Shown: piece after piece, positions 11,866 through 56,401 of the stretch
Numbering within the stretch: the first letter of the stretch is position 1
How the letters are laid out: each line of letters starts with the position of its first letter
DNA from: Tetracentron sinense
Lineage: Eukaryota > Streptophyta > Magnoliopsida > Trochodendrales > Trochodendraceae
Reading direction: 5' to 3'
Assembly (NCBI GenBank): GCA_015143295.1
Contig: CM026567.1
Coordinates: 16,076,416-16,140,415, forward strand
DNA length: 64,000 nucleotides
Made by a program: the position numbers and the translations under genes
The notes under the pieces: generated by a model
The model's input: the letters and a program-made list of their open reading frames with translations, nothing else
The model's database searches: none
What the model was told of the DNA's origin: nothing

Positions 11866-11985
11866 CTACTGATAACCCTCTACGGGAGGTTCCTCCAAAG
11901 GCTCCTCGACGAACTCCTCTTCCACCCATGGACCAGGAGCACAAACATCAAATGGAGCAGCAGCTCCCTCAGAACCTGCCGACAT
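11866..11985 (-). CDS. Small conserved acidic ORF inside LTR (39 aa)
   Basis: ATG at 11,985-11,983 opens a 39-residue ORF ending TAG at 11,868-11,866. It begins MSAGSEGAAAPFDV and continues CAPGPWVEEEFVEEP, then ends in EGYQ. It is strongly acidic, with no signal peptide or membrane segment. A hairpin (GCTGAG, 9-base loop, CTCAGC) lies just upstream. Equivalent ORFs occupy the same LTR position at 25,978, 40,762, 43,930, 51,558, 55,873 (start lost) and 28,768 (minus, start lost). Function unknown. Alternatively the acceptor-like GGCAG/G inside its start marks a leader exon. Confidence 0.55.
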   Translation of the reverse strand: MSAGSEGAAAPFDVCAPGPWVEEEFVEEPLEEPPVEGYQ

Positions 11986-13000: not shown

Positions 13001-13404
13001 CCATCTCATAGCACATGTGTAAATGACAGAAAATCAAAAGAAATAGAGGGAAAGGAGGGACTATAACTAGGAGGGTAGTAAAATGTACCGACCTTGAAGA
13101 GATGAGGAAGAAATCCCTCTTCCAAACGACTGTGAGTTGCTGCCCTAGCTTGGAACATGAGCTTCGCACGAGCTTGAGCCGAGATCTTGAAGAAAACTGG
13201 ACTGGAGGTTGATCTAGGGTTTCAAAACCCTTTGCTTTCTCTCCAAAAATGGAAACCTAGGTTGGAATCGCCTTCTCCCCTTTCTCCTATTCTCTCAAAC
13301 TCTCTAAGTGTTGAGAATGAGCCCTAAAGGCTCGGGTTAAACTCTTAAGGTAAGAGTGAACTGACAAAAGACCATAACACCCTTACTAAATTTCTGTAAA
13401 AACA

Positions 13405-25977: not shown

Positions 25978-26097
25978 ATGTCGGCGGGTGTTAGTGGAGT
26001 GCCCGCTCCTTTTGACATCTGTGCTCTTGGCCCATGGGTGGAGGAGGAGTATGTTGAGGAACCTATGGAGGAGCTTCATGTAGATGGTTACTATTAG
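25978..26097 (+). CDS. Small conserved acidic ORF inside LTR (39 aa)
   Basis: ATG 25,978-25,980 to TAG 26,095-26,097. It reads MSAGVSGVPAPFDICALGP, then WVEEEYVEEPMEELHVDGYY. Against the element A version many codons differ only at the third base (ttt gac atc against ttt gat gtt; gag gaa against gag gag), while PFD, GPW and the EEEYVEEP block are kept. This is what coding constraint would look like. The hairpin upstream is weaker here (ctaagtattccatgctttg). Function unknown. Confidence 0.55.
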   Translation: MSAGVSGVPAPFDICALGPWVEEEYVEEPMEELHVDGYY

Positions 26098-28630: not shown

Positions 28631-28768
28631 TCAAAAGTCGAAGTCTCGACACCTATCTATTGCACCATCATCCTGATAATGATCCATGGAAGGCTCCAGG
28701 TCGAAGTACTCTTCCTCTACCCATGGTTCAGTACCGCATAGATCGAATGGATCCCGAGCACCTACCGA
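28631..28768 (-). pseudogene. Acidic LTR ORF, diverged copy without ATG
   Basis: The frame reads SVGARDPFDLCGTEPWVEEE, then YFDLEPSMDHYQDDGAID and RCRDFDF before TGA. PFD, PW and the VEEEY block match the other copies, and the frame is free of stops over 45 codons, but the ATG position holds TAA. Either this copy lost its start or the segment is used as part of a longer spliced reading frame. Confidence 0.5.
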
Positions 28769-38260: not shown

Positions 38261-39040
38261 GTTGTGGGTTGTGTGTTGAGTCTAAGGACTCGTAATTTTG
38301 TTTTATCGGGTATAGACCCGGTCGATTTACAAATGATTTACAACTCAAAACTGAATGTGTATGGGCTATGGTAGTTAATAGAGTTCAAAGACTCGAATGA
38401 ACATGATTGATTGTTTGGAATGAAACCTGGTGTTGCGAACACTGCTAAATGAATGAACTACATAAATGAAAAACACTAAAGAAGTTGGGAATCTCGGATA
38501 GGGTAAAATAACCCTGAGTGACCTTGGGTCACAAATTATGGTATTATTATCCTATATATTATCGGTAACACGGAAATAGAACTGTAATACTATATCATTA
38601 TTGATGTGTAATACTATGTGGAAAATAGTTTAGATGGATTGTGGATTTTCCTAGGCTTTATAGCTCATTCTCATTTTATGTCCTCAGATCCTGAAGCGGT
38701 TGCTAGTTAGCAAGGAGCTACGTATGATAGATTTTGATTGGTGCATTAGTGGCACCAAAAGTAAAGACTATTGTAGCAAGTAAGGTAACGCATTTTCTTA
38801 TGATGTGTTATTGTGATGACAAGTTGTGTAGAACCTCGGAACTCACTAGAATAGCTTGTGAATAGTATTTTAAGGCTTAAAGGCCTTCTATGTGTTTTGT
38901 CTAATGATAAACGAATGAAAGGGACGTTTGAATCAAACTAAATGTGTTGTAGGGGTGTTTAAGACAAGGTAGAAGAGTGGAAACATTGTAAGGATGAAAA
39001 ATGGAGAAAAAAAAAGGGAAAATGGCCAAGTTCTGGTGAA

Positions 39041-39320
39041 GGCCGGTCAATCGCCCCTCAAGGCCGGTCAACTGACTGTCCCAAAAAGCCCCAAAATGGG
39101 CTTACAGTGAGTTTGTGTTCAAGGTCGGTCGACTGCCCCAGGCCGGTCAACCGACAGTATGCGATTTGGCCAAAAGAGGGGCCACAGTAATCGTCCAGCC
39201 TCAGCCGATCGATCGCCCCTCCTGGTCGGTCGACCGACCTTTAAGGATTTGCGATTTTTCCACTTGTGCACGAATCCTAAGGGTAATTTAGAGTTTTTAA
39301 ACCCCCTTGGATTATAAATA
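39041..39320 (+). promoter_or_regulatory. Quasi-palindrome array and TATA box, D 5' LTR
   Basis: Units such as ggccggtcaatcgcccc, ggtcggtcgactgcccc, agccgatcgatcgcccc and ggtcggtcgaccgacc repeat across 39,041-39,243. TATAAATA follows at 39,313-39,320. The 3' LTR copy (52,778-52,975, TATA 53,046-53,053) shows the same arrangement. Confidence 0.7.
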
Positions 39321-40079
39321 CCCATCCATTTCGTGGGTTTTGGATTCCTAACACCTAAGGAGAGTTTTGGAGAGGAAATGGAGAAAAGTTAGGGTTTTTG
39401 GAGGAGCTTCTCAAGATCCAAGGTGAAACCCAAGTTTCACCTCCAAAGCTTCTCAAAATCAAAAAAGGGGAACAAAGATCTTACAAGCCAAGGCATTTCT
39501 CACACTCAAAGCCTTGAGGATTCAATCTCAAAGGTAAATACACTCTCCTATCTAGCTTTGTTATAATCCAAGTATTGGCATGTGGATTTTAAATGGGGGT
39601 TTCTCAAGAATAAGAGTAAATACTTCTACTAGTTGGCTTTGTTGTGATGCCCTAAGTGGATACACTTTAATACCTAGCTTTGGCATATGATTGTATAAAA
39701 ACCCTTAAGAAAAGCATGTTTCAATGATTTTGCTTGATGAATGAATGTTAATGATCTTGAAATCTCATTGGGTGAAATGTCATGCTAATCTTGTTTCTAT
39801 GTTTAAGGATTTTCTAAGTCTCCTATGATGCTTATAAGTTTTATTTAAGCATGCATTGAATGGTAGAAACTTAAGTATATTATGATACTCTATGGTGATA
39901 ACTCAATGTTTAAAGGTTTTCTAAGGTTGCTACGATACTTAGATGCTTCTTATGATTTAGTTTACAAGTTCATAAGTTTACAATGATCTTCACAAATCTC
40001 CTATGCACCTCATGTACACTATGCTTGCATGATCGAAGTTTTTGCATAAACATGGTATTTCAAAGTCATAAGAAATGGT

Positions 40080-40555
40080 TTTAAAGGAAAGCTCATAAGA
40101 AAAGGGATAACTCATAAGAATCAATAAGGCCAAACTTTGGGCTGGTAAAGTCTAAGATCGGTTACAATTTCTCTACAGATCAAAAGTCTAAGATCAGTTA
40201 CAAATTCTCTAAGGATCATATCTAAGATCGGTTACGAATTCTCTAAGGATCAAAAGTCTCGCAAGGCTCTTATAAGAACTCACAAGAATGCTCATATGGC
40301 TCACAATTGCTCATAAGGCTTACCAGTGCTCATAAGGCTCATAAGGATCCAGTCTAAGATTGTTTTACAAGTCTCCATGGATCAAGTCTAAGATTGTTTC
40401 ACAAATCTCTACAGATCAAGTGTAAATCGGTTACAAGGCTCATAAGCTCATAAGACTCATAAGAACGAAAAAGAAGCATAAGCTCATAAGAACTCATAAG
40501 ACTCTTAAGTTCATAAGTAACTCATAAGCTAATAAGAAAAGAAATCTCATAAGAT
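40080..40555 (+). repeat. Short-unit repeats in D LTR
   Basis: Five or six copies of agtctaagatcggttacaa with ctctaaggatca, then many copies of ctcataag(a/g) with period 8-10. The 3' LTR has the matching block at 53,880-54,042 and 55,390-55,655, split by solo LTR E. Confidence 0.8.
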
Positions 40556-40761
40556 ATGTTTTGGTTTTACGGAAGTTCATATGATAACGATTTTAAAAAG
40601 ATGTGCACGGTTAAGTTAAGTTTTTGAAGTTTGAATTTTATGTTTGATTTAAAGCATGTATTATGATCTGTTGCTTAAAGTTTCATATAATATTGTTGAT
40701 TATATTATTATTGGCTAGTAGACTGTATACGCTGAGTATTCCATGCTCAGCTATACATTTT

Positions 40762-40896
40762 ATGTCAGTAGGTCCATTTGACATATATGCTCTCAGTCCT
40801 TGGATCAAGGAGGATTACGGTGAGGAGAAGCTGGCAGAGGCTCAGCTAGAGGAGGATAGGAACCTAGATAGGTGGCCTTATCATGGGTATTATTGA
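40762..40896 (+). CDS. Small conserved acidic ORF inside LTR (44 aa)
   Basis: ATG 40,762-40,764 to TGA 40,894-40,896. It reads MSVGPFDIYALSPWIKEDYG, then EEKLAEAQLEEDRNLDRWPY and HGYY. Compared with element A it lacks the SEGAAA insert and has a longer acidic tail, but keeps PFD, PW and E-[DE]-Y. The hairpin GCTGAG...CTCAGC stands 11 bases before the ATG. The frame is open about 33 codons upstream too, so the start is chosen by conservation of ATGTC(G/A)G. Confidence 0.55.
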   Translation: MSVGPFDIYALSPWIKEDYGEEKLAEAQLEEDRNLDRWPYHGYY

Positions 40897-41610
40897 GAGA
40901 GGGTGAGTAAGAGAGATTTTATTTTGTGTTTTGATGAGTGAGCATGTCCACTCTTACTTCGGTTTTATGTTATATAAACCTGGAATACTGTCAATGTACA
41001 AAATAAATTTTCAGTTACCGCTTCCGCTATGTTTGTCACTTCTGCTATATTATTGCCTTGTATGTTTTATACAGGATGGTTAGTCATGGAAGGATAGTCA
41101 TACACAAAGTCACACCTAACTCCTAGGTATGATTTTGAGGTGCGACAAAGTTGGTATTAAAGCTCGGGGATTAGTTTCCTAAGGCTAAGCGGAAGTCAGA
41201 ATTAGGTTATCCGATTCTTTGAGTTGAACTAAGAACTCGGATGAATTATAAATTTATGTATGACACCAGAGTTGGTATCATATCAGAGCCTAGGCATTAG
41301 GTTCTATAGGGTCACTTAGAGTTCGATACCGTGATCGAAACAAGGCATTAGGTCCAAGAAGAGTGTCATATTCCAAGTATAGACTAATCCTTTAGTCTTA
41401 GTCTTAAACAGATTGATTTCAACTGAAGTGTCTTAGCTTTGAGAGGTTCCTAGTGAAGCTAACCTCAAGTGTATTATTATACTATAGCGTGTATATCTTG
41501 ATGTATGCTCTATTCTTATATGAATACTTGATGTTGTTGAACTTCAATGCTTAAATAAGCATGGTTTCTGAGTTAGACTCATGTTTCGCTATTGTTCTCA
41601 AGACTCAGTC

Positions 41611-41885
41611 ATGAGACATGGTACAAGGGCTCATGGACACCATACTAGGGGTAATGGATCATCTCCTCCTCCAGAGGATGAGGCACCACCCGACTTTGCT
41701 CAGGCCTTTGCTTCGATAGTTGAGACATTGGCCATGCTTGCAGCTAGGCCGACTACTGCAGCGGCTACACCTCCAAAGTTTTGTAAGAGAGAAGTTGTAG
41801 GTCTCCACTATACTGGGATGAGGTTGATGAAAGGAAAGTATTGGGTCCTGAGTTGATCAAGTAGACCGCAGACAGGGTCAGGATC
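41611..41885 (+). pseudogene. Element D gag N-terminus fused by deletion to integrase end
   Basis: Starts MRHGTRAHGHHTRGNG and continues EDEAPPDFAQAFASIVETLA, matching element A gag. After PPKF (about 41,782) the sequence jumps to the integrase region [11 protein letters not shown] in a shifted frame; the element A equivalent is at about 48,829. Some 4 kb of gag-pol is missing. The integrase part is cut at 41,885 by element A and contains a TAG (LIK, stop). Not functional. Confidence 0.88.
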
Positions 41886-42179
41886 TGTAGAGACCCAGAC
41901 TTTTTCATGCTTAAAACATGACACTTTCGTTGTCATTTTGCCTTTTAAGGAGGTATAATTAATAAATTAGGAAGAAATTTGGAAATTTCGAAATTTCAAA
42001 AATGTTCCTTTTCAAAGTACGAACACAACGCAAGTTAAATCGTCAAAATCGGACGAACGAGTCAAAAGATATGGCCAAAACAGTCTGGACCTGTAGGAAA
42101 TCGTAGCTCGGTTAGGCGCTAAGGACTTAGCTCGGAAGGCGCTAAGGACATAGCTCTAGCTCTGATAACGTATACGTTG

Positions 42180-42510
42180 TGCGTCCGTTGTACAGCAACA
42201 ACGGTACGTTGTACAACTCACAACGGGTACGTTGTACAACACCACGGGCACGCTGTACATAAGACAACGGACAACGTGTTCAGCACTGTCCACAACGGAC
42301 AACGTGTTTGGCACTGTTCACAGCTCAACGAGCTCAGCACTATGCACAACACAACGTGACAACGGGTTCGGCACCCTTCACAACGGATAACGTGTTTGGT
42401 ACTATTCACAGCACAACGAGTTGGCACTGTTCACAGCACAACGAGTTGGCACTGTTCACAGCGCAACGAGTTGGCACTATTCACAGCACAACGAGTTCGG
42501 CACTCGTGTT
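42180..42510 (+). repeat. Palindromic and 25 bp tandem array, A 5' LTR
   Basis: Starts with acgttgtacaac units containing the perfect palindrome GTTGTACAAC, then about eight variants of cactgttcacagcacaacga(gttgg). This occupies the U3 position held by ccgatcgatcgg arrays in related LTRs. No clear TATA box follows; the expected place reads ttaagagtttaa near 42,562. Confidence 0.8.
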
Positions 42511-43419
42511 TTTACAGAAATTCAGTAAGGGTATTATGGTCTTTTGGTCGGTTCACTCTTACCTTAAGAGTTTAACCCGAACCTTTAGGGCATCATTCGA
42601 CACTTAGAGAGATTGGGAGATAAGAAGAGAGGAGAAGGCGATTCCAAACCTAGGGTTTCGAGTTTGGAGAGAAATCAAAGGGTTTTGAGACCCTAGATCA
42701 CTCCTAGTCCGGTTTTTCTTCAAGATCTCGGCCCAAGCTCGTGCGAAGCTCGTGTTCCAAGCTAGGACAGCAACTTACAGTCGTTTAGAAGATGGATTTC
42801 TTCCTCATCTCTTCAAGGTCGGTACTTCTTACTACCCTCCTAGTTATAGTTCCTCTCATCCCTTCTTTTCTTTAGATTTTCTTTCATTTACACATGTATT
42901 ATGAGATTAATGGTGAATGGTGAATGGTGAATGGTGAATGGAGATGAGTGGGGGCGATTGGATGCCGTGTGTATTGATGTGATGGATGAACGGGGAGGGC
43001 ATTGTACCCATAATGAACAAACATATGTGATGTGAGTAAAACCCACATAGAAAAGCATGTTGTAGGGTTAATGAATAATGAACACACCATGTTTGATGAA
43101 ATGCCAAGGTGAATAAAGTGAGATGTAAATTAGTAAATGCATGCCTAATAAATTCTGAATATTGCTAGGGCCTTTGATAGTGTGTTTCCTGCTTTCCCTA
43201 AATGATATGAATATTACATTGCTCAATCATTGATGCCATATGTGTTGTGAAATTACCCAAATGTCATCTTTAAATTTAAATGCAAGTATGTACACGGTTC
43301 CCACGAGCACGGCATGCATGGAATGATTTATCGAGGTTTTCAAGAACATGATTAGAGGTGGGACATATCCTACGATATGTTTTACCTCGCTTTTCACAAG
43401 AAGACAAGAACCAACATTC

Positions 43420-43565
43420 CACGAGGGGTCTCCCCTCACTCACAAGTGCATATCATGAAGAAGGGCCTCCCTTCCCTCGCAAGTACATACATATCATGAA
43501 GAAGGGTCTCCCTTCCCTCGCAAGTGCATCGCATAAAGAAGGGTCTCCCTTCCCTCTCAAGGCAT
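43420..43565 (+). repeat. ggtctccc tandem module, A 5' LTR
   Basis: Four units of aagggtctcccttccctcgc aagt(gcat) with period 35-45. The module is also at 51,050-51,190 in the 3' LTR. Confidence 0.8.
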
Positions 43566-43898
43566 CTCTCAAGGCATCTCACAAGGATATCTCACAAGTG
43601 TATCTCACAAGTTACATGATCACAAGCAAGCACGCATGACATGCATGAAATGACACGACATACAAGAATCAAGCAAGATAGACAAGACAAGCTTTCAAGC
43701 ACGAAAAGATATTTCAAGTCAAGTCAAGTGCACAATGTTTTCAAGAGAATTTTTCGGCTTTCTACGAAATACAAGCATGATTATGAATTGCTTTACTTCC
43801 TTGTATGATATGAATTGTTTCCATCTGACATATATGAATTGCTCCTGATTATGCACTGCCATTTTTATGCTATAATTGTTGGTTAGTATTTAGTACCC

Positions 43899-43919
43899 GC
43901 TGAGTATTCCATGCTCAGC
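43899..43919 (+). promoter_or_regulatory. Conserved hairpin upstream of LTR acidic ORF
   Basis: GCTGAG, nine-base loop tattccatg, CTCAGC. Present with the same loop in both A LTRs, both D LTRs (40,731, 55,845) and the minus solo LTR (about 12,000). Decayed in the solo LTR at 25,945 and close to it in the 1.9 kb solo LTR (28,790). It stands about 11 bases before the ORF start and could act on RNA or DNA. Confidence 0.6.
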
Positions 43920-43929
43920 TGTACTTCTT

Positions 43930-44049
43930 ATGTCGGCAGGTTCTGAGGGAGCTGCTGCTCCATTTGATGTTTGTGCTCCTGGTCCATGGGTGGAAGAGGA
44001 GTACGTCGAGGAGCCTTTGGAGGAACCTCCCGTAGAGGGTTATCTGTAG
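43930..44049 (+). CDS. Small conserved acidic ORF inside LTR (39 aa), A 5' copy
   Basis: ATG 43,930-43,932 to TAG 44,047-44,049. It reads MSAGSEGAAAPFDVCAPGP, then WVEEEYVEEPLEEPPVEGYL. Eleven Asp/Glu against no Lys or Arg make it very acidic; no membrane segment. If transcription starts upstream in this LTR, the ORF lies in the long 5' leader of the genomic RNA. A splice-acceptor-like GGCAG/G lies within its fourth codon, so a leader exon is the main alternative. Confidence 0.6.
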   Translation: MSAGSEGAAAPFDVCAPGPWVEEEYVEEPLEEPPVEGYL

Positions 44050-44356
44050 GTGGTGTTAGATTCTGAGTGGATTAGCTATGGGTGAGATGAGAGTTAGATT
44101 TATGTATTTTTGGCGGGCATGTCCGCACTTTCTTATGGTTACCTTTTGTATAAACTTGGATTCGTATATATATACATAGAGGTTTGTTTAGACTTCCGCT
44201 GTGCTATGTTAGAGTATGTTTCCGCTGTTTATTTCCTCTATTGTATATGTTTTGTGGGTTTTTGCAGGTTGGTTTGTCAAGCAAGTCATGTAAGCCATGA
44301 TTAGTCATCCAAAGTTCACTCTAACTCCTAGGGTGGGTTTTGGGTCGCGACAGAAG

Positions 44357-44368
44357 TGGTATCAGAGC
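44357..44368 (+). other. Primer-binding site of element A
   Basis: Perfect TGGTATCAGAGC four bases after the LTR end (CA at 44,352), complementary to initiator tRNA-Met. Confidence 0.95.
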
Positions 44369-44713
44369 TTAGGCTTTAGGTCTCTAGGGTCACTTAGAAT
44401 CTTATACCACGGCTTGACAAGAGCATATGTCAGGAAACAAGTTAGGAAGAAAGTAAGTCGGAAGAGAGTCTTGATCCAAGTGTAAGACTAGACTTTAGTC
44501 TTAGTCTAAAATGGTTGCTTTAACCAAGTACGGGTCCTAGGTATGCTAGAACGCTAAAGTATAAGCATAATGTGATGAATACTCTGATGACTTGATGTGA
44601 TGTATATTAGTATTATACAACTAATACAAATTGAATTATTGAGAAACGACATTGAAATAAACTGTGGTTTCAAGTGAGACTCATGTGATGCTATTGTTCT
44701 CAGGACTTTAGTC

Positions 44714-45997
44714 ATGAGGCGGGGCACGTGGGGTCGTGGACCACACACCAGAGCTTCATCTTCTTCCAGAGATGAGGATGAGCAGCCGGACCTCTCCCAG
44801 GTCTTAGGCTCTATTGCTGAGACACTCGCCATACTGGCGGCTCGGCAGGCTATACCGGCATCAGCGGCACCTACTCCACCGCCCGCAGCTCCAGTACATC
44901 GTACAGCTGGAGTTGAGGCATTCAGGAGATTGAGGCCTCCATCCTTCCATGGGAGTGTGGACCCTCTTGCTGCGGAGGCGTGGATCCTCCAGATGGAGAA
45001 GATCTTTACGGTCCTCTCACCTACAGAGGAGGAGAGAGTAGCATGGGCAGCTTTCATGCTAGAGGGCGAAGCCCACCATTGGTGGTTGTCCGCATTGAGG
45101 ATGCGAGATTTGACCATGCAGGGTCAACCTTGGACTTGGGAGGAGTTCAAGGATACTTTTTACAAGAAGTATTTTCCGATTGGAGTACGGGAAAAGAAAG
45201 AGAGAGAATTCATCAACCTCGAGCAAGGTTTGATGTCAGTGGCACAATACGAGGCCAAGTTCTCGGAGCTATCACGCTTCGCGACTCACATGGTTGCCAC
45301 CGAGGCAATGAAGGCAAGAAGGTTTGAGCAAGGGCTCAAAGATGTTATAATGGAGAAGGTTTCGGTTTTCAGACATGCTACCTACCCTGAGGTAGTAGAC
45401 AAGGCCTTATTGGTCGAGGCCAATTCAGAGACAGTGTCCAAGAAGAGGGAGTTGGCGAGAGGCCAAGCTAGTAGTTCAGCACCTCCAGAGAGGCGGGCTC
45501 GTTATCAGTATGCGTGGCCAACACCACCGATGAGGCCTTCTTATGCGCCTCCAGCTCCACGGCAGTATGTGCCTCAGGCACCGCGACCTCAGGCTCTTCC
45601 AGCCCCACGGCCTGTTGCACCTCAGACGGTGAGGTATGCTCCACCTCCGGCCCCTCCGACTTATACACACGAGGTCTGCACTTCATGCGGCCGAAGGCAC
45701 CCGGCAGGAGATTGCCGAAGAGCATCGGGTGGATGTTTTCATTGTGGTCGCCAGGGCCATATGATCAGGGATTGCCCCAGTCGGCATTTACCAGGCCAGT
45801 CTCAGGAGATTAGGCCACCAGCACGCCCAGCAGGATCATACCAGGCGTCATCTCAGACTACCCGGTCTACACCTCAGTCTCGCCAGGTGAACCAGGGACG
45901 AGTTTTTGCCTTGACAGAGGGTGATGCACTTGCATCTGATGATGTGGTGCAAGGTACGCGTTTGGAGTTAATTTCGTTATTCGTGATTGTTATGTAG
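44714..45997 (+). CDS. gag: gag polyprotein of element A
   Basis: Open for 427 codons from MRRGTWGRGPHTRASSSS. Retrotransposon gag domain about residues 75-240 (FRRLRPPSFHGSVDPLAAEA, GEAHHWW, TFYKKYFPIGVREKKEREF, LSRFATHMVATEAMKARRFE), then a Pro-rich linker, and two zinc knuckles: CTSCGRRHPAGDC (CX2CX3HX4C) and CFHCGRQGHMIRDC (CX2CX4HX4C). It forms the particle and binds genomic RNA. Unspliced RNA ends translation 44 bases inside the intron. Spliced at 45,954, the frame continues from ASDDVVQ into the protease, so splicing would choose between gag and gag-pol. ATG chosen because it follows the open leader and aligns with gag of C and D. Confidence 0.93.
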   Translation: MRRGTWGRGPHTRASSSSRDEDEQPDLSQVLGSIAETLAILAARQAIPASAAPTPPPAAPVHRTAGVEAFRRLRPPSFHGSVDPLAAEAWILQMEKIFTVLSPTEEERVAWAAFMLEGEAHHWWLSALRMRDLTMQGQPWTWEEFKDTFYKKYFPIGVREKKEREFINLEQGLMSVAQYEAKFSELSRFATHMVATEAMKARRFEQGLKDVIMEKVSVFRHATYPEVVDKALLVEANSETVSKKRELARGQASSSAPPERRARYQYAWPTPPMRPSYAPPAPRQYVPQAPRPQALPAPRPVAPQTVRYAPPPAPPTYTHEVCTSCGRRHPAGDCRRASGGCFHCGRQGHMIRDCPSRHLPGQSQEIRPPARPAGSYQASSQTTRSTPQSRQVNQGRVFALTEGDALASDDVVQGTRLELISLFVIVM

Positions 45998-46095
45998 TGT
46001 TTTATTCCTTGTGTACATACTTGGTATGCTATATATATATACCTATGTGTATACACTGTTGATGCTTGAATTGACGTAACTAGTTAAAATTTCAG
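45954..46095 (+). other. Putative intron between gag and pol of element A
   Basis: Donor CAAG/GTACGC and acceptor AAATTTCAG/GA, 142 bases, AT-rich, with stops in the gag frame at its start. Removal joins G with GA in phase 1 and puts gag (frame 2) and pol (frame 0) in one frame. The joined segment [20 protein letters not shown] is what plant gypsy proteins have without a gap. Element C has the same interval, 143 bases, at the same codon. Confidence 0.8.
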
Positions 46096-49000
46096 GAACC
46101 CTACTAGTCAATGAGTATTTGGCTCGAGTATTGATTGATACCGGGTCTACTCATTCGTTTGTCTCGCCGAGTTTTTCAGAAGGCTTTTCTGTAGAGCCAA
46201 GTCGGCTAGAACCGGAGTTAGCCATTTCGACTCCTCTCGGCAAAACAGTATTGGCAGATAAAGTGTATAGAAATAGTGTGGTCCAAGTTGGAAGCCACGA
46301 GTTGGCAGTTAACCTCATCGTCCTTGGATTCCAAGACTTTGATGTGATATTGGGAATGGACTGGTTAGCAACACATCATAGGCATGTAGCTTGCTTTGAG
46401 AAAATGGTACTCTTCAAGCCAGTAGAAGGAAAACCATTCCACTTTCGCGGGTTGAAAGGTAGATATATTGCTCGTTTTGCGGCGTTGAGCTTAGCTAACC
46501 CCGAGGTAAAGGACTCATCGACTATTCCGGTTGTGAGTGAGTTCCTGAATGTATTTCCAGAGGAGTTGCCAGGATTGCCTCCAGACAGGGAGATTGAGTT
46601 TATGATCGAGCTTGCACCAGGCACAACTCCTGTTTTCAGGGCTCCGTATAGAATGGCCCCTATTGAACTCAAAGAGTTAAAGACCCAGTTGGAAGAATTA
46701 CAAGGTCTTGGTTTCATTCGACCAAGTGTCTCACCGTGGGGTGCCCCGGTGTTGTTTGTTAAGAAGAAAGATGGCTCGATGCGGATGTGCGTCGATTACA
46801 GGCAATTGAACAAAGTCACTATAAAGAATAGGTATCCCTTGCCTAGGATTGATGACTTGTTCGATCAGTTGAAGGGAGCGAGATTTTTCTCGAAGATAAA
46901 TCTTCGATCGGGTTATCACCAGTTGAAGATTAAGGTGGAAGATGTTCCCAAAACTGCTTTCAGGACTCGGTATGGACACTACGAGTTCTTGGTGATGCCT
47001 TTTGGACTCACGAACGCGCCGGCAGCCTTTATGGATTTGATGAACCGGGTGTTCCGGCCATATCTTGATAGGTGTGTGATTATATTTGTTGATGACATTT
47101 TGGTCTATTCCCAGACACGGGAAGATCACACACGCGACCTATGCCTTGCTTTGGAAATGCTAAGAGAACACAAGCTATACGCCAAACTTAGCAAGTGTGA
47201 GTTTTGGTTGGAAGAGGTGGCATTCCTAGGCCACGTTGTTTCTGCAGAAGGCATCTCGGTTGATCCAAAGAAGATAGACACAGTCATGAGTTGAGCAAAG
47301 CCCAAGAGTGTCACAGAGATACGTAGTTTTCTTGGGTTGGCAGGCTACTACAGGAGATTCGTAGAGGGTTTCTCTAGCCTTGCAGCACCGCTCACTTACC
47401 TGACAAGGAAGAACGCCAAGTTTGTATGGAGTGATAAGTGCGAGATCAGTTTCACGGAACTGAAGACGAGGCTTACTACAGCCCCGGTCCTTACTGTGCC
47501 ATCTGGACCTTATGGGTATGAGGTGTACAGTGATGCCTCACACGTTGGACTTGGGTGTGTACTCATGCAGCACAAGAAAGTCATTGCCTATGCATCAAGG
47601 CAATTGAAGGAGCATGAGAAGAATTATCCCACGCACGACTTAGAGCTTGCCGCAGTCGTGTTTGCACTCAAGATTTGGCGTCATTACCTTTATGGGGTGG
47701 AGTTCTATGTGTTTACCGATCACAAGAGTCTCAAGTACCTCTTTTCCCAAAAGGAGTTGTATCTAAGGCAACGGCGTTGGATGGAATTTTTGAAAGACTA
47801 TGATTGTACCATTCAATACCACCCGGGTAAAGCAAATGTAGTGGCTGATGCTTTGAGTAGAAGACCTCAGGGGTTGTTAGCACACATGTTGGTTCAAGAA
47901 TGGAAGCTACTTGAAGATTTGGCAAATCTCGACATCAGTGTGAATGACTCTGTCCGTGGTCCTACCTTGGCAAATGTTATGGTTCGGCCATACATTATAG
48001 ATTTGATCCAAGAATATCAAGCCATGGATGCGGAATTGTTGGCTTATCGGGACAAGGAAGTTGCTAAGGGTAGTGAGGACTTCTCTCTCACTAGTCGGGG
48101 TGCCATCACATTCAAGGGAAGGCTGTACGTCCCAGCCAATGCAGATCTTCAAAAAGAGATTTTGGATGAAGCACACCGTTCGAAGTACAGAGTGCATCCA
48201 GGGGGTACAAAGATGTACCGGAACCTCAAGAGTCACTTTTGGTGGCGGAATATGAAGAGGGAGGTTGCGGAATATGTAGCACAGTGCTTGGTGTGTCAAC
48301 AGGTAAAAGCAAAACACATGCGGCCCGCAGGTCTATTACAGTCCCTTCCGATTCCCAAGTGGAAATGGGAGAACATATCCATGGATTTCATAGTTGGCTT
48401 GCCAAAAACGGCAAGGGGCTCAGATGCGATATGGGTAGTAGTGGATCGTTTGACGAAGTCCGCTCACTTCTTACCTTACCGAACTACTTTCAACTCTAGT
48501 CAGTTGGCGGCACTATACATCAATGAAGTAGTTAGACTACATGGGGTGCCAGTCAGTATTGTGTCGGATCGGGATCCAAGATTCACGTCAAGATTTTGGA
48601 AAATTTTCCAGGAGGCTATGGGTTCCCGACTTGATTTCAGCACCGCTTTTCATCCACAAACGGATGGAAAAACCGAGAGAGTGAACCAAGTCATTGAAGA
48701 CATGCTTCGGGCTTGTATGTTGGATTTCAAAGGCGGTTGGGAAGAGCACTTGCCTTTGGTTGAATTCGCCTATAATAACAGCTATCAGGCAAGTATTCAA
48801 ATGGCACCATTTGAGGCCTTCTATGGGCGAAGTTGTAGGTCTCCTCTCTATTGGGATGAGGTAGGAGAAAGGAAAGTACTTGGTCCAGAGTTGATTGAGC
48901 AAAATGCAAACACAGTTAAGATCATCCGGGATCGATTGAAAGCCGCTCAAGACCGCCAGAAAAGCTATGCGGACACACGCCGTAGGGACTTGGAATTTCA

Positions 49001-49421
49001 AGTAGGGGATCAGGTTTTTGTGAAAGTATCTCCTAGCAAAGGGATCATGAGATTCGGAAAGCGAGGCAAGCTCAGTCCTCGGTATGTTGGGCCTTTTGAG
49101 ATTATCACACGAGTTGGTGAGGTTGCTTACAGGGTAGCTCTCCCACCTCACATGGCTGCAGTTCATAACGTCTTCCATGTGTCTATGCTTCGGAAGTACA
49201 TTGCGGATCCTTCGCATGTCATAGACTTGGAACCGTTGGAGATTCGAGAGGATCTCACCTTGATTGAAAAGCCGGTTCAGATTTTGGATCGAAGAGATCA
49301 GGTGCTTCGCAACAAGACAATCCCTTTGGTTCTTGTGCAATGGCAACACCATGCTCGGGAAGAAGCTACATGGGAGCGTGAAGCCGAAGTCAAAGCAAAG
49401 TATCCAGAGTTAATCGAATGA
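46096..49421 (+). pseudogene. pol: pol polyprotein of element A: protease, RT, RNase H, integrase, chromodomain
   Basis: One frame of about 1,108 codons with a single stop. Protease DTG at 46,137-46,145 is intact (DTGSTHSF). RT: motif A reads [13 protein letters not shown], so the catalytic Asp is Asn (AAT at 46,899-46,901); motif C FVDD at 47,088-47,096 is intact. TGA at 47,292-47,294 replaces an expected Trp after VMS, before [14 protein letters not shown]. RNase H ([33 protein letters not shown]) and integrase follow without damage: H2C2 finger, Asp at 48,384, Asp at 48,567, Glu at 48,675 (D-X60-D-X35-E). The tail [20 protein letters not shown] is a chromodomain-like end of Tekay type. Both lesions are single G to A changes on plus. 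Confidence 0.93.
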
Positions 49422-49505
49422 GTTTTGTATTGGTTTGTATATAACTGTAATTTTCTTTTTGATTTATAATGCAAGTATCGTCTGAATTTCGAGGACGAAA
49501 TTTTT

Positions 49506-49519
49506 GTAAGGGGGGAGGA
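49506..49519 (+). other. Polypurine tract of element A
   Basis: gtaaggggggagga directly before the 3' LTR (TGTAGAGCCCC at 49,520). Primer for plus-strand DNA synthesis. Confidence 0.9.
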
Positions 49520-51980
49520 TGTAGAGCCCCAGACTTTTTCATGCTTAAAACATGACACTTTCGTTGTCATTTTGCCTTTTAAAGAGGTATAATTAATAAA
49601 TAAGGAAGAAATTTTGAAATTTTGAAATGTCAAAAATGTTCCTTTTCGAAGTACGAACACAACGCAAGTTGAATCGTCAAAATCGGACGAACGAGTCAAA
49701 AGATATGGCCAAAACAGTCTGGACCTGTAGGAAATCGTAGCTCGGTTAGGCGCTAAGGACGTAGCTCTAGCTCTGATAACGTATACATTGTGCGTCTGTT
49801 GTACAGCAACAACGGTACGTTGTACAACTCACAACGGGTACGTTGTACAACTCACAACGGGTACGTTGTACAACACCACGGGCACGCTGTACATAGGACA
49901 ATGTGTTCAGCACTGTCCACAACGGACAACGTGTTTGGCACTGTTCACAGCTCAACGAGCTCAGCACTATGCACAACACAACGTGACAACGGGTTCAGCA
50001 CCCTTCACAACAGACAACGTGTTTGGTACTATTCACAGCACAACGTGTTTGGTACTATTCACAGCACAACGAGTTGGCACTGTTCACAGCACAACGAGTT
50101 GGCACTGTTCACAGCACAACGAGTTCGGCACTCGTGTTTTTACAGAAATTCAGTAAGGGTATTATGGTCTTTTGGTCGGTTCACTCTTACCTTAAGAGTT
50201 TAACCCGAACCTTTAGGGCATCATTCGACACTTAGAGAGATTGGGAGATAAGAAGAGAGGAGAAGGCGATTCCAAACCTAGGGTTTCGAGTTTGGAGAGA
50301 AATCAAAGGGTTTTGAGACCCTAGATCACTCCTAGTCCGGTTTTTCTTCAAGATCTCGGCCCAAGCTCGTGCGAAGCTCGTGTTCCAAGCTAGGACAGCA
50401 ACTTACAGTCGTTTAGAAGATGGATTTCTTCCTCATCTCTTCAAGGTCGGTACTTCTTACTACCCTCCTAGTTATAGTTCCTCTCATCCCTTCTTTTCTT
50501 TAGATTTTCTTTCATTTACACATGTATTATGAGATTAATGGTGAATGGTGAATGGTGAATGGTGAATGGAGATGAGTGGGGGCGATTGGATGCCGTGTGT
50601 TTTGATGTGATGGATGAACGGGGAGGGCATTGTACCCATAATGAACAAACATATGTGATGTGAGTAAAACCCACATAGAAAAGCATGTTGTAGGGTTAAT
50701 GAATAATGAACACACCATGTTTGATGAAATGCCAAGGTGAATAAAGTGAGATGTAAATTAGTAAATGCATGCCTAATAAATTCTGAATATTGCTAGGGCC
50801 TATGATAGTGTGTTTCCTGCTTTCCCTAAATGATATGAATATTACATTGCTCAATCATTGATGCCATATGTGTTGTGAAATTACCCAAATGTCATCTTTA
50901 AATTTAAATGCAAGTATGTACACGGTTCCCACGAGCACGGCATGCATGGAATGATTTATCGAGGTTTTCAAGAACATGGTTAGAGGTGGGACATATCCTA
51001 CAATATGTTTTACCTCGCTTTTCACAAGAAGACAAGAACCAACATTCCACGAGGGGTCTCCCCTCACTCACAAGTGCATATCATGAAGAAGGGCCTCCCT
51101 TCCCTCGCAAGTACATACATATCATGAAGAAGGGTCTCCCTTCCCTCGCAAGTGCATCGCATAAAGAAGGGTCTCCCTTCCCTCTCAAGGCATCTCTCAA
51201 GGCATCTCACAAGGATATCTCACAAGTGTATCTCACAAGTTACATGATCACAAGCAAGCACGCATGACATGCATGACATGACACGACATACAAGAATCAA
51301 GCAAGATAGACAAGACAAGCTTTCAAGCACGAAAAGATGTTTCAAGTCAAGTCAAGTGCACGATGTTTTCAAGAGGATTTATCGGCTTTCTACGAAATAC
51401 AAGCATGATTATGAATTGCTTTACTTCCTTGTATGATATGAATTGTTTCCATCTGACATATATGAATTGCTCCTGATTATGCACTGCCATTTTTATGCTA
51501 TAATTGTTGGTTAGTATTTAGTACCCGCTGAGTATTCCATGCTCAGCCGTACTTCTTATGTCGGCAGGTTCTGAGGGAGCTGCTGCTCCATTTGATGTTT
51601 GTCCTCCTGGTCCATGGGTGGAAGAGGAGTACGTCGAGGAGCCTTTGGAGGAACCTCCCGTAGAGGGTTATCTGTAGGTGGTGTTAGATTCTGAGTGGAT
51701 TAGCTGTAGGTGAGATGAGAGTTAGATTTATGTATTTTTGACGGGCATGTCCGCACTTTCTTATGGTTACCTTTTGTATAAACTTTGATTCGTATATATA
51801 TGCATAGAGGTTTGTTTAGACTTCCGTTGTGCTATGTTAGAGTATGTTTCCGCTGTTTATTTCCTCTATTGTATATGCTCTGTGGGTTTTTGCAGGTTGG
51901 TTTGTCAAGCAAGTCATGTAAGCCATGATTAGTCGTCCAAAGTTCACTCTAACTCCTAGGGTGGGTTTTGGGTCGCGACA
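49520..51980 (+). mobile_element. 3' LTR of element A
   Basis: 2,461 bp, same module order as the 5' LTR. Visible differences: an extra acaactcacaacgggtacg unit and a lost stretch in the palindromic array (49,800-50,130), and scattered point changes such as cataagacaacgg against cataggacaatg. The repeat arrays change more than the rest. Confidence 0.95.
51558..51677 (+). CDS. Small conserved acidic ORF inside LTR (39 aa), A 3' copy
   Basis: ATG 51,558-51,560 to TAG 51,675-51,677. Identical to the 5' LTR copy except one Ala to Pro change (gtttgtcctcct). The hairpin before it has one loop-adjacent difference (gctcagccgt). Same considerations as for 43,930-44,049. Confidence 0.55.
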   Translation: MSAGSEGAAAPFDVCPPGPWVEEEYVEEPLEEPPVEGYL

Positions 51981-52487
51981 AGATCATTAGGGAGAGGTTG
52001 AAAATTTGCCAGAGTCAGTATAAGAGCTATGCCGATAACCATAGGAGAGATCTTGAGTTCAGCGTTGGCAATTATGTTTTTGTCAAGATTTCGCCAACAA
52101 AGGGTGTTATGCGCGTAGTTTGGAAAAAGGGGCAAGCTCAACCCTTGGTATGTGGGTCCGTTTAAGATCATTACAAGAGTCGGTGAGGTGGCTTACTCAG
52201 TCGCTCTACCTACTCACATGGTGGCAGTTCACAACGTCTTTCATGTTTCCATGATCCGGAAATACATATCGGATCCTTCGCACGTGATCGATCTCGATCC
52301 GTTGGAGATCCATGAGGATATCACACTGGTAGAGCAACTAGATCAGATCTTGGATAGGCGAGATCAACTCTTGCACAACAAGACCATTCCATTGGTCCTC
52401 TTGAGATGATAGCACCATTCTGCAAAAGAGGCTACAAGAGAGCACGAAGCCGAAGTAAAGGAAAAATACCCTCATTTGTTTTCTTAG
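51981..52487 (+). pseudogene. Integrase C-terminus and chromodomain of element D, right half
   Basis: Resumes after element A with IRERLKICQSQYKSYADNHR, RDLEFSVGNYVFVKISPTKG, then a frame change near 52,110 and [60 protein letters not shown] and a stop where relatives have Gln/Trp sequence. The tail AKEATREHEAEVKEKYPHLF ends at TAG 52,485-52,487. Non-functional. Confidence 0.9.
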
Positions 52488-52536
52488 TTGGTCTTTATGT
52501 TTTGTAGTTTGTTCTAATTTTGAGGACGAAATTTCT

Positions 52537-52550
52537 ATAAGGGGGGAGGA
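52537..52550 (+). other. Polypurine tract of element D
   Basis: ataaggggggagga immediately before the 3' LTR start at 52,551, nearly the same as in element A. Confidence 0.88.
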
Positions 52551-54042
52551 TGTAGAACCCCGGAATTCACTAGAATAGTCTATGAATAGTGTCAGTGAAA
52601 AGTGTTTTAAGGCTTAAAGGCCTTCTATGTGTTTTGTCTTATGGAAATTGAATGAAAGAGTTTGAATCAAACTAAATGTGTTGCAGGGGTGTTTAAGCCA
52701 AGGTAAAAGAGTGGAAATACTCTAAGGATGAATAATGGAGAAAAAAAAGGGGAAAATGGCCAAGTTCTGGTGGAGGCCAGTCGACTGCCCCTCAAGACCG
52801 GTTAATCGACTGTCCCAAAAAGGCCCAAACTGGGCTTATAGTGAGTTTGTGTTCAGGGCTGGTCAATCCCCCCGGCTTGTTGGCCGACAATATGCGATTT
52901 GGCCAAAAATGGGGCCACAGTAGCCGTCCAGTCTCAGCCGATCGATCGCCCCTCCTGGCCGGTCGACTGACCTCTAGGGATTTGTGATTTTTCCCCTTGT
53001 GCCCGAATCCTAAGCGTAATTTAGAGTTTTTAAACCCCCTTGGATTATAAATACCCATCCATTTCGTGGGTTTTGGGTTCCTAACACCTAAGGAGAGTTT
53101 TGGAGAGGAAAAGGAGGAAAATTTAGGGTTTTTGGAGGAGCTTCTCAAGATCCAAGGTGAAACCCAAGTTTCACCTCCAAAGCTTCTCAAAAATCAAAAA
53201 AGGGGAACAAAGATCTTGCAAGCCAAGGCGTTTCTCACACTCAAAGCCTCAAGGATTCAATCTCAAAGGTAAATGCACTCTCCTATCTAGATTTGTTATA
53301 ATCCAAGTATTGGCATGTGGGTTTTAAATGCGGGTTTCTCAAGAATAAGAGTAAATACTTCTACTAGTTGGCTTTGTTGTGATGCCCAAAGTGGATACAC
53401 TTTAATACCTAGCTTCGGCATATGATTGTATAAAAACCCTTAAGAAAAGCATGTTCCAATGATTTTGCTTGATGAATGAATGTTAATGATCTTGAAATCA
53501 TGTTGGGTGAAATGTCATGCTGATCTCATTTCTATGTTTAAGGATTTTCTAAGTCTCATATGATGCTTATAAGTTTTGTTTAAGCATGTATTGAATGATA
53601 GAAACTTTCTAAGTATATTATGATACTCTATGGTGATAACTCAATGTTTAAAGGTTTTCTAAGGTTGCTACGATACTTAGATGCCTCTTATGATTTTGTT
53701 TGCGGGTTCCTAAGTTTACAATGATCTTCACAAATCTCCTATGTACCTCATGTATACTATGCTTGCATGATGAAGTTTTCGCATAAACATGGTATTTCAA
53801 AATCATAAGAAATGATTTTAAAGGAAAGCTTTTACGAAAAGGGATAACTCATAAGAATCGACAAGGCCAAACTTTGGGTTGTTAAAGTCTAAGATCGGTT
53901 ACAATTTCTCTACGGATCAAAAGTCTAAGATCGGTTACAAATTCTCTTAGGATCATGTCTAAGATCAGTTACGAATTCTCTAAGGATCATAAGTCTCGCA
54001 AGGCTCTCATAAGAACTCATAAGAATGCTCATAAGTGCTCAT

Positions 54043-55389
54043 TGTAACGTGTAAATTTCTTCATGCGTTTAAAATTACCTCCATTGTTGTATAGAGTTTA
54101 TTGTTTTGTGTAGGGGACTATCCTTCATATCTAAGTAAACCCAGACTGTTAATTACCTTCCCAATTTGGGGAAGAACCTCTGATTAAGAAGAACAATAAA
54201 GAAGAACAAAATATTTGAATAAAGTATTTGTTTATTCAATGGGGTTGCCCAGATCCGATGTAGGCATTATAGATACCTCATTGAGGTTTTTTACAAAAAA
54301 GAAAAAGAAAGAAAGATAGGTGGCCATATTGGGGGTCACCTGATATTCTCCGTTGATGGGAGATCTTTCTTCTTCCTCATTAGTTGTTGTTTTCCTGTAA
54401 AAGAAGAGAAAGCTTTTTTTGCTTTTTTTGCTCCGTTTCCTCTTGTGAGTGGTTCGTGAGAGTTTTTTGTGAGAAACTCCCTTTTATATCTTTTGGAGAG
54501 TCCTTTTTGGACTTCCCTTTGACTTCGTCATTCTTAGGAAACCAAAAGAGGTCAACTCTCCTTAGAGAGGGTCATCTGTCTAAGATAGTTAGTTTACATT
54601 ATCTTGGGGAAACCTCGTACCCATGGGAGTCCTTTTTTGAAGGACTCTAAATTGGTTTCCTTTTTTGAAAACCTAGGAGGATAAAGCTTCCCTTCAAAAG
54701 AGAGAAGAATCTTATCTTCCAAGAAAAGGGGAAAGATTACTCTCCTTTTCAAATGGAGTGTCATATGGCACTCTATTATTGGAGAAAAATAAGGGATCTC
54801 TATCTTGGGATCCTCCAAAGTTGGCAGAGAGACATTTTTTTATCAGGGATTCTCTGCCACATAGCAGTCAGTATGTTACTGCCAGCTGGGTGGTCAGTCC
54901 ACAAGTTAAAAGGGTGAGACCATGGGTCTCACCCATGGTCTGGGTCAGGTCCAAAGTTTATTTCGACTGTAGACCAGGGTCTGACCTTAGTCAGTCCGCA
55001 GACCAAGACAGGGTAGGATCATGGGTCTAGCCCTTAGTCTCGGCTAAGTCCCTGGCCATAATGGTCATGGATTGGTTAGTCATTAACTAACCCATAGATG
55101 GACTCGTAGAGTCTACCCGCAAAGCTTACATGGGGGTTTGCCCGCAAGGGTAAACCCTACCTACGTGTCAGTCCTATAGGGACTGACACACAAGGATGTC
55201 CGTGGGTCATCATTGCCTTACTACCAACATTAAATGCTAGACGGGCTGGCGGTAAGCCATCCCTTGGCCAGCTGGTACACGTGCCTTTGGTATGTGCAAA
55301 GCTTAACCGTTCATTCTATGGGTGGTGATCAGGTTTAGGCAGGTGTACCATACTCCGGCCCTGCGGGCGGTGATATTTCACTATCCACA
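54043..55389 (+). mobile_element. Solo LTR E (1.35 kb), family unassigned
   Basis: Starts TGTAACGTG and ends tatccaca. CTCAT at 54,038-54,042 and 55,390-55,394 is a perfect 5 bp duplication, although the target is ctcataag repeat sequence, so part of the match could be chance. No ORF of note. The interior has a repeated gtctcacccatggtctgggt-type segment near 54,915-55,050 (gggtctcaccc and gggtctagccc). Orientation is not proven. Confidence 0.8.
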
Positions 55390-55872
55390 CTCATAAAGCT
55401 CACAAGTGCTCATAAGGTTTACCAGTGCTCATAAGGCTCATAAATTCTTATAAGGCTCATAAGGATCCAGTCTAAGATCATTTTTCAAGTCTCTACGGAT
55501 CAAGTCTAAGATCGTTTCACAAATCTCTATGGATCAATTATAAAATCAGTTACAAGACTCATAAGCTCATAAGACTCATAAGAACGAATAAGACGTATAA
55601 GCTCACAAGAACTCATAAGACTCATAAGCTCATAAGTAACTCATAAGAAAAGAAATCTCATAAGATATGTTTTAGTTTTACGAAAGTTAATAAGATAATG
55701 ATTTTGAAAATATTTGCACGGTTAAGTTAAGTTTTTGAAGTATGAATTCTATGTTTGGTTTGAAGTTTGTATTATGATCTGTTGCTTAAAGTTTCATATA
55801 ATATTTTTGATTATATTATTGTTAGCTAGTGGATTGTATACGCTGAGTATTCCATGCTCAGCTGTACATTTT

Positions 55873-56007
55873 ATATCGGCAGGTCCATTTGACATCTATG
55901 CTCCTGGTCCTTGGATTGAGGAGGATTATGGTGAGGAGGAGCCGAAAGATGCTCAGCCAGAGGAGGATAGGAACCTGGATAGGTGGCCTTATCCTAGGTA
56001 TTATTGA
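55873..56007 (+). pseudogene. Small acidic LTR ORF, D 3' copy with lost ATG
   Basis: The ATG position reads ATA (55,873-55,875). Downstream the frame is open to TGA 56,005-56,007: GPFDIYAPGPWIEEDYGEEE, then PKDAQPEEDRNLDRWPY. Compared with the 5' LTR, both synonymous and amino acid changes occur, and the PFDIYA...PW core is kept. A longer open frame begins at 55,735. Confidence 0.5.
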
Positions 56008-56401
56008 GAGAGGGTGAGTGAGAGAGATTATATTTTTTATTTCGATGAGTGGGTATGTCCACTCTTACTTCGGTTTTATGTTGTATAAACTTGGAATACT
56101 TTCCATGTATAAAATAAATTTTCAGTCTATGTTTCTGCTATGTTTGTCACTTCCACTATATTATTGCCTTGTATGTTTTATACAAGATCATTTGTCATGG
56201 AAGGATAGTCACGCACAAAGTCACACCTAACTCCTAGGTGGGATTTTGGGGTGCGACAAGTTGTTATTGCTTATGTAAGCTTAGAAGAAAAGTTGAAAAT
56301 TTCTCGCATTTTAGAGGGCAAAGTCTTTCGCTGCATGGTAATGACGATCGGGCGCGCGTCTTGGAACATGATTCCCTAAGGCACGGGTTAGGGGTGTCAC
56401 A

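What the first reader, a model, noticed from the sequence alone, without database searches (positions are those of the whole stretch)
43899..44049. Conserved acidic mini-ORF inside LTRs of several diverged Tekay-like lineages
Seven LTR copies carry, at the same place about 300-600 bp from the LTR 3' end, an open frame of 37-45 codons with core P-F-D-[IVL]-[CY]-[AG]-x-x-P-W-[VI]-[EK]-E-[DE]-[YF] and an acidic tail. Sites: 11,985-11,866 (-), 25,978-26,097, 28,768-28,631 (-), 40,762-40,896, 43,930-44,049, 51,558-51,677, 55,873-56,007. Surrounding LTR sequence differs widely between lineages, yet in this segment differences are often third-base (ttt/ttc, gat/gac, cca/cct, gaa/gag, tac/tat) and the PFD and PW positions never change. 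Four lineages are represented. Five copies start with ATGTC[GA]G. I know of no named LTR-encoded peptide of this kind in plant chromoviruses. It might act in trans on chromatin or the host, be a regulatory uORF in the long leader, or be a leader exon.
Basis: partly seen in the sequence, partly recalled or inferred. Interest (0 to 1): 0.88.

Follow-up and report, generated by a model that had tools for sequence, protein, structure and literature searches.

The report
Conserved coding exon inside retrotransposon LTRs
A short acidic protein segment in the terminal repeats of a very abundant family of plant jumping genes has been kept by natural selection, and it looks like a spliced exon that may give the element's shell protein an alternative tail.

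Summary
In detail: all seven sites carry the frame. It is protein-coding. In 91 copies (84 from the same genome, 7 from the window) dN/dS is about 0.2 at 3-35% divergence and 0.49 below 3%; the other two sense frames give 1.2 and 1.6. PW is the steadiest feature; PFD is not constant genome-wide.

The start codon is the weak point. Seven copies of several types have no in-frame ATG yet stay constrained (pN/pS 0.34); one subtype has a stop directly before the frame and 1,280 exact copies. What is shared is an acceptor-like TCGGCAG|GT, phase 1, so I read the segment as an exon.

The elements also carry a gag-pro intron, phase 1: 47 genomic places lack it exactly, 1,962 have its donor side. Best model: splicing from that donor to the 3'-LTR acceptor gives Gag an acidic tail.

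Shown: coding constraint; precise intron absence. Inferred: use of the LTR acceptor; Gag fusion. No RNA data. Three searches for genomic junction copies involving the LTR exon found none.

The parts
43930..44049 (+). mini-ORF in the 5' LTR of element E (39 codons plus stop)
51558..51677 (+). mini-ORF in the 3' LTR of element E; the copy proposed to be translated, as an exon from 51568
   Evidence: exon start inferred from the acceptor-like motif
11866..11985 (-). mini-ORF copy A (LTR 11574-14058, E-like)
25978..26097 (+). mini-ORF copy B
28631..28768 (-). mini-ORF copy C, no ATG, stop directly before the frame
40762..40896 (+). mini-ORF copy D
55873..56007 (+). mini-ORF copy F (ATA in place of ATG)
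43899..43919 (+). palindrome GCTGAG-TATTCCATG-CTCAGC; its 19-base core occurs 19,489 times in the genome
43930..43939 (+). acceptor-like A1 (..TCGGCAG|GT), phase 1 with the mini-ORF; same motif at 51558-51567
   Evidence: use as a splice site is inferred
44082..44267 (+). possible intron 2: donor TGG|GTGAGA to acceptor A2 TTTTTGCAG|GTT
   Evidence: splice-site matrix typed from general knowledge; no genomic copy without it found
42578..42817 (+). proposed leader exon 1, about 240 bases, 1 ATG in this copy, ending AAG|GTCGGT; its start is taken from a conserved motif, not from a mapped transcription start
42818..43939 (+). proposed leader intron 1, dense in ATG (51 counted up to the palindrome)
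   Evidence: inferred
44694..44703 (+). end of acceptor-like A3 (..TTGTTCTCAG|), 10 bases before the gag ATG
44714..45953 (+). gag, ending in the phase-1 donor CAAG|GTACGC
45954..46095 (+). gag-pro intron (142 bases, phase 1)
46096..49421 (+). protease to chromodomain coding region (E carries at least one stop inside it)
41886..44352 (+). 5' LTR of element E
49520..51980 (+). 3' LTR of element E

Best explanation
The mini-ORF is a protein-coding exon carried in the LTRs of a large clade of Tekay-type (chromodomain Ty3/gypsy) elements of this plant. It encodes roughly 30-45 residues around P-W-[VI]-[EK]-E-E-Y with an acidic tail, and begins at a phase-1 splice acceptor (TCGGCAG|GT) rather than at its own start codon. 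The likeliest expression route is alternative splicing of the element's RNA from the phase-1 donor at the end of gag: joined to the protease exon it gives Gag-Pol; unspliced it gives Gag with a short intron-encoded end; joined to the 3'-LTR acceptor it gives Gag with an acidic tail (..ASDDVVQ-G|SEGAAAPFDVCAPGPWVEEEYVEE..). A tail of this kind beside the zinc knuckle could damp nucleic-acid binding or recruit a partner. Shown: coding constraint, its frame, lineages without ATG, the acceptor-like motif, exact absence of the gag-pro intron in some copies. Inferred: that the LTR acceptor is used, that gag is the partner, and what the tail does.
For: dN/dS 0.20-0.22 in the four bins from 3 to 35% divergence, 0.49 below 3%. 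True frame 0.21 against 1.17 and 1.61 in the other sense frames, 866 pairs. Seven copies of several types without any in-frame ATG keep pN/pS 0.34 before their internal Met; the T4 subtype with TGA directly before the frame has 1,280 exact copies, often paired about 7.0 kb apart. TCGGCAG-like motif in 84 of 86 palindrome-selected copies. In L100 only three sites in 3,201 bases score above 3 as acceptors, A1, A2 and A3; the same three occur in E. Gag-pro intron with the same donor AAG|GTACGC in E and T4 and the same phase; 47 genomic places without it, 1,962 with the donor side. Gag donor and A1 are both phase 1.
Against: No RNA or peptide data. No genomic gag|mini-ORF junction, though such an RNA would lack the polypurine tract and would not be expected to be copied back. 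No copies with the LTR exon joined to another upstream sequence (that pattern could not see a gag junction) or lacking intron 2, although gag-pro intron loss does leave copies. A1 is the best-scoring acceptor of its stretch in only 4 of 84 copies. The T4 gag-pro acceptor did not score above 3. Phase agreement alone has a one-in-three chance. Six of 18 donor-like sites conserved in pol are also phase 1, and one phase-0 pol site scores as high as the gag donor. The 3' copy is transcribed only if the poly(A) site lies beyond it, which is untested. ATG directly before the frame is present in 71 of 84 copies and hardly varies in T1/T2 types.
Confidence: 0.45

Rival explanations
1. A stand-alone micropeptide or conserved-peptide uORF translated from its own ATG (ATGTCGGCAGG) in the families that have it, from an RNA starting in the LTR; lineages without the ATG use another start or have lost the peptide.
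For: 71 of 84 genome copies have ATG directly before the frame; its three bases differ in 0.00, 0.00 and 0.05 of 332 T1/T2 pairs. The leader upstream has almost no ATG.
Against: 8 of 84 copies have no in-frame ATG before a stop; seven of these, of several types, keep pN/pS 0.34; one such subtype has 1,280 exact copies. Distance from palindrome to AG is 20, 21, 22 or 23 bases, so no fixed upstream frame. About 50 ATGs lie between the proposed leader exon and this one.
Confidence: 0.27
2. The exon is spliced to another donor in the element (for example a phase-1 site in pol, or a coding exon not recognised here), giving a different protein with this tail.
For: Six of 18 donor-like sites conserved between E and T4 pol are phase 1; the strongest is CGG|GTAAAG / CGG|GTAAGG (6.6 / 8.8).
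Against: Those sites sit in conserved amino-acid motifs that force GT (judged from the sequence); only the gag-end donor has exact intron-free copies.
Confidence: 0.2
3. Nucleotide-level element (splice regulator, promoter or RNA structure) that only looks coding.
For: The palindrome and acceptor motif directly upstream are conserved as DNA; one antisense frame, which shares wobble positions, gives 0.32.
Against: Frame-specific constraint, peptide kept across types that differ by in-frame indels, a peptide relative in an independent metagenome contig (P0018), no Rfam family in the 5' LTR and leader.
Confidence: 0.04

Closest known systems
Tekay-clade chromoviruses
   Same: Gag, protease, RT, RNase H, integrase and chromodomain profiles in that order; methionine-tRNA-type primer site after the LTR (recalled; sequence).
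   Different: LTR coding exon and gag-pro intron are not in the passages read of PMC6317226 or PMC11728184.
Ogre elements (Tat lineage), spliced intron in the polyprotein region
   Same: In-element intron removed from part of the RNAs; described in passages of PMC6317226.
   Different: [quoted passage not shown] here it lies between gag and protease, in a chromodomain element.
EVADE and BARE1 short-GAG RNAs; C. elegans Cer1 spliced product
   Same: Splicing yields an extra Gag or accessory product (passages of PMC12786077).
   Different: None of the passages describes an exon lying in the LTR.
Tekay 5' additional ORFs (sunflower, grasses)
   Same: Extra non-canonical coding in Tekay elements (passages of PMC11728184).
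   Different: About 400-residue, proline-rich protein with a nuclear signal at the 5' end of the element; here a short acidic segment in the LTR.
MMTV Sag, a retroviral protein encoded in the LTR (recalled, no call)
   Same: Coding sequence inside an LTR.
   Different: Unrelated host and a full protein with its own start; no sequence comparison was made.

Membership tests
Tekay-type chromovirus (host element E) | chromodomain at the end of integrase | tested here: met
   PF00385 at residues 648-694 of the ORF 47337-49421, 25.1 bits, at the Pfam cut-off
Tekay-type chromovirus (host element E) | gag, PR, RT, RH, INT order | tested here: met
   PF03732, PF08284, PF00078, PF17917, PF17921 in that order; rve below its cut-off
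Tekay-type chromovirus (host element E) | place in the Tekay clade of an RT tree | not tested
[quoted passage not shown]
   intron lies between gag and protease
Ogre-type spliced polyprotein | intron shown to be removed from RNA | tested here: inconclusive
   47 genomic places with the exact junction; no RNA seen, loci not read
Conserved-peptide uORF | own AUG in all members | tested here: not met
   8 of 84 copies without in-frame ATG before a stop; 1,280-copy subtype
Conserved-peptide uORF | constraint on the peptide | tested here: met
Tekay 5' additional ORF | about 400-residue ORF at the 5' end of the element | tested here: not met
   the + strand ORFs of 150 aa or more inside E are gag and pol only
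LTR-encoded accessory protein, MMTV Sag-like | spliced RNA reaching the 3'-LTR frame | not testable with these tools
   no RNA data

The most novel reading that the evidence does not exclude
A whole clade of very abundant plant chromoviruses (19,489 exact copies of its LTR palindrome in one genome) uses one phase-1 donor at the end of gag as a three-way switch: unspliced gives Gag, splicing to protease gives Gag-Pol, and splicing across the element into an exon in the 3' LTR gives Gag with a selected acidic tail. The LTR would then be protein-coding as well as promoter and terminator.
Probability: 0.4. Interest if true: 0.88.

Novelty: new variant of a known kind. Interest (0 to 1): 0.78.

Why it matters
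Plant LTRs are usually treated as non-coding control regions. A selected protein segment in them, kept across many types, would be a new accessory function for one of the commonest kinds of plant repeat, and a gag-pro intron would bear on how these elements balance Gag and Gag-Pol. Both can be tested with long RNA reads. Nine full-text searches of the open library and passages of five papers showed no description of either; of most hits I saw only the listing, and subscription papers are mostly not held, so this is weak evidence of absence.

Tried and rejected
Upstream LTR exon with a start codon: a stretch near 43081-43107 in E (ATGAACACACCATGTTTGATGAAATGCCAAG|GTGAA) was found in related form in 24 of 96 upstream stretches, but its length varies by one or two bases and its frame breaks. 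Rejected as coding; left unexplained.

Exon 1 joined directly to the mini-ORF as a translation route: rejected, because exon 1 has 0-1 ATG and, in L100, a stop in that frame (read by hand).

The block 42504-42811, shared between types, was suspected to be coding; it has many single-base indels and no shared frame. A TATA-like sequence in C and a clear TATA box in L100 made me read it as promoter plus leader.

Palindrome as covarying RNA hairpin: the next outer pair is a standard pair in 76 of 86 copies, 72.7 expected if independent. Not supported; inner pairs untestable because copies were chosen by exact match.

Relatives elsewhere: viral contigs gave nothing usable (the one locus, L001, does not carry a comparable frame). 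A protein search with window copies found none; with 14 sequences it found one, P0018, 47 residues, E = 0.007. Of 17 gag relatives I read 13: P0002 seems to run into a similar intron, P0004 and P0005 read straight through.

Junction searches: gag|pro 47 places; gag|mini-ORF 0; other sequence before the T1 exon 0, by a pattern that excluded G at -5 and so could not see a gag junction; mini-ORF|A2 0. The T4 gag|pro test and the exon 1|gag test did not complete.

LTR-wide coding scan of 7 pairs: the mini-ORF gave the lowest p in 3 pairs (E5-L017, L015-L017, L030-B), ranked second and fourth in L028-L036 and E5-L036, and did not stand out in the two T3-type pairs, where it has few differences; p values were not corrected for about 100 windows per pair. 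No other stretch was consistent.

Dropped before counts: identical segments among the 90 loci (86 distinct left); 2 without an acceptor motif; 6 of 91 with frames under 28 codons; 3 of 15 copies without a located leader start. Ten of the 100 listed palindrome places were not fetched, and all 100 lie on contig C1, so the sample is not random.

Full report
What is there. The seven sites are real. E5 (43930) and E3 (51558) lie in the two LTRs of an element at 41886-51980 whose ORFs match gag, protease, RT, RNase H, integrase and chromodomain profiles. A is an LTR 87% identical to E, inserted in a sequence whose uninterrupted counterpart is at 2585-4350, so a solo LTR. D and F flank the E insertion and look like the LTRs of an older element. 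B and C are two further lineages. Between lineages most differences fall on third codon positions (B-E5 6, 7, 17), while D-F, which should have drifted since insertion, is even (5, 6, 8).

Copies from the whole genome. The window lies in an unnamed 1.16-Gb genome. The 19-base core of the palindrome upstream of the mini-ORF, which holds no part of the frame, occurs 19,489 times exactly; the reversed control occurs 0 times. Of the first 100 listed places I fetched 90, giving 86 distinct copies, 84 with the TCGGCAG-like motif. By eye they fall into about ten peptide types (T1-T10), among them SAGTEGALDPEPWVEEEYIEEREPSIPLQSQADRDLDVWPYLDYC*, SAGARVPFDLCGEEPWVEEEYRDPEPSMDHYHDDGALDRSRDFDFC* and SAGFDERAPEPWIKEEYYDPEPTMDHPCENRVLDRRPYSDYW*. 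With the seven window copies, 85 of 91 keep the frame open for at least 28 codons and 75 of 91 have PW[VI][EK][EA]. In a 14-sequence set S, P and W are the invariant columns.

Coding test. Pairwise NG86 dN/dS is 0.20, 0.22, 0.20 and 0.21 in the 3-8, 8-15, 15-25 and 25-35% bins and 0.49 below 3%; above 35% synonymous sites are saturated. The rise in the youngest bin is what decay after insertion predicts. For 866 pairs 8-30% apart the true frame gives 0.21, the other sense frames 1.17 and 1.61, the antisense frames 1.19, 0.32 and 1.59; I take the 0.32 to come from shared wobble positions. Pairs are not independent, so these are effect sizes, not significance tests. In 30 T1/T2-type copies the first six codons after the AG show no periodicity and the later ones do. 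A scan of the LTR in 7 pairs showed no other consistent coding stretch; the mini-ORF itself ranked first in 3 of the 7.

Where the frame begins. Of the 84 copies, 71 have ATG directly before the TCG codon, 5 have another in-frame ATG upstream, 8 have none before a stop. One of the 8 is a T1 copy with ATA. The other seven, of several types, show pN/pS 0.34 upstream of their internal Met. The T4 subtype with TGA directly before the frame (TTGTTATGATCGGCAGGTGC) occurs 1,280 times exactly, often as pairs about 7.0 kb apart, which suggests recent activity. The distance from palindrome to AG is 20, 21, 22 or 23 bases. What the types share is ..TCGGCAG|G, a plausible 3' splice site, with the frame in phase 1. 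In favour of a real start codon, the ATG hardly varies in T1/T2 types.

The transcript around it. In T1/T2 LTRs a block about 1.3 kb upstream ends CAAG|GTCGGTAC; the four T3-type copies aligned lack that end. In the 12 of 15 copies where both edges could be located, this stretch of 238-244 bases has 0 ATG (8 copies) or 1 (4 copies); the next stretch, 993-1,957 bases up to the palindrome, has 48-68. The T4-type copy L100 has TATAAATAGGC, no ATG from there to AAG|GTAGAT, then dense ATGs; in its 3,201 bases three sites score above 3 as acceptors: A1 at the mini-ORF, A2 near the LTR end, A3 just before the gag ATG. The same three occur in E, with two lower-scoring extra sites in the LTR. This fits a spliced leader, and makes the 5'-LTR mini-ORF an unlikely template. 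A1 is the best-scoring acceptor of the stretch examined in 4 of 84 copies, a site more than 200 bases downstream in 62.

The gag-pro intron. E's gag reads ..ALASDDVVQG, then 142 bases with stops, then the protease frame; in T4 (L101) the same place has 138 bases. Both begin AAG|GTACGC and end TCAG, both are phase 1, and the two sides read ..SDDVVQ-G-[TS]-[19 protein letters not shown]. The donor scores 8.9 in both; the acceptor scores 3.5 in E and not above 3 in T4. The copy in L101 also has a stop within gag shortly before the donor. A search for the exact junction found 47 places, 12 identical to the probe and 35 with 1-3 differences, in at least two sequence variants; the donor side with intron occurs 1,962 times. 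I did not read these loci. The simplest account is that spliced RNA was sometimes copied back; a precise loss by another route is not excluded. The metagenome protein P0002 seems to run into a similar intron.

Putting it together. A coding exon that in some types has no start of its own, with a phase-1 acceptor, in an element whose best-supported donor within the coding region is also phase 1, suggests Gag with an alternative end made by splicing into the 3' LTR. No genomic junction copy was found, but such an RNA would lose the polypurine tract and most of the LTR upstream of the exon, so none is expected. The phase match has a one-in-three chance by itself. Conserved phase-1 donor-like sites exist in pol (6 of 18), and a phase-0 pol site scores 8.9 in both elements; the part of T4 gag between L100 and the donor was not in that comparison. 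I put 0.45 on the Gag-tail route as a whole and about 0.95 on the statement that the segment is protein-coding under selection.

Beyond this genome. One 47-residue predicted protein from an ENA metagenome contig carries CAPVPWVEEEYVEEP..DQWPY (P0018, E = 0.007 in 5.8 billion sequences), so the segment is not private to this assembly. Other plant genomes could not be searched.

Comparison with the literature. From passages only: Tekay 5' additional ORFs (PMC11728184), the Ogre intron (PMC6317226), spliced short-GAG RNAs of EVADE and BARE1 and the Cer1 product, with the statement that plant LTR elements generally lack introns (PMC12786077). PMC7730604 (passages) reports spliced sunflower retrotransposon RNAs but no Tekay elements in its expressed set. 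PMC11656987 (passages) concerns LTR signals. None of these passages describes an exon inside an LTR or a gag-pro intron in a chromovirus.

Noticed in passing
43899-43919 and same place in the other LTRs: Palindrome GCTGAG-TATTCCATG-CTCAGC whose 19-base core occurs 19,489 times exactly in the genome. Its function is unknown; covariation of the outer pair was not significant.
   Followed up: partly
45954-46095; L101:454-591: Phase-1 gag-pro intron in a chromodomain element, exactly absent at 47 genomic places.
   Followed up: partly
43081-43107; also L011, L013, L031, L045 upstream stretches: Motif around GTGTTTGATGAAATG conserved in several LTR types at varying distances upstream, without a constant frame.
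   Followed up: partly
43986-44066: The Pro-Trp codons CCA TGG contain an out-of-frame ATG that opens a Gly/Arg-rich frame over the exon in E; neither of the other two sense frames shows constraint.
   Followed up: partly
11574-14058 and 2585-4350: Solo LTR inserted in one copy of a repeated sequence whose uninterrupted copy lies at 2585-4350.
   Followed up: no
38827-56268: Element E nested in an older element whose LTRs carry mini-ORFs D and F.
   Followed up: no
G000:C1:42125949-42139986: Three T4-type LTR marks spaced about 7.02 kb apart on one strand, suggesting elements in tandem sharing an LTR.
   Followed up: no
49467-49550: A short frame runs from before the polypurine tract into the 3' LTR (MQVSSEFRGRNFCKGGGCRAPDFFMLKT). 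FRGR before the tract recurs in L101.
   Followed up: no
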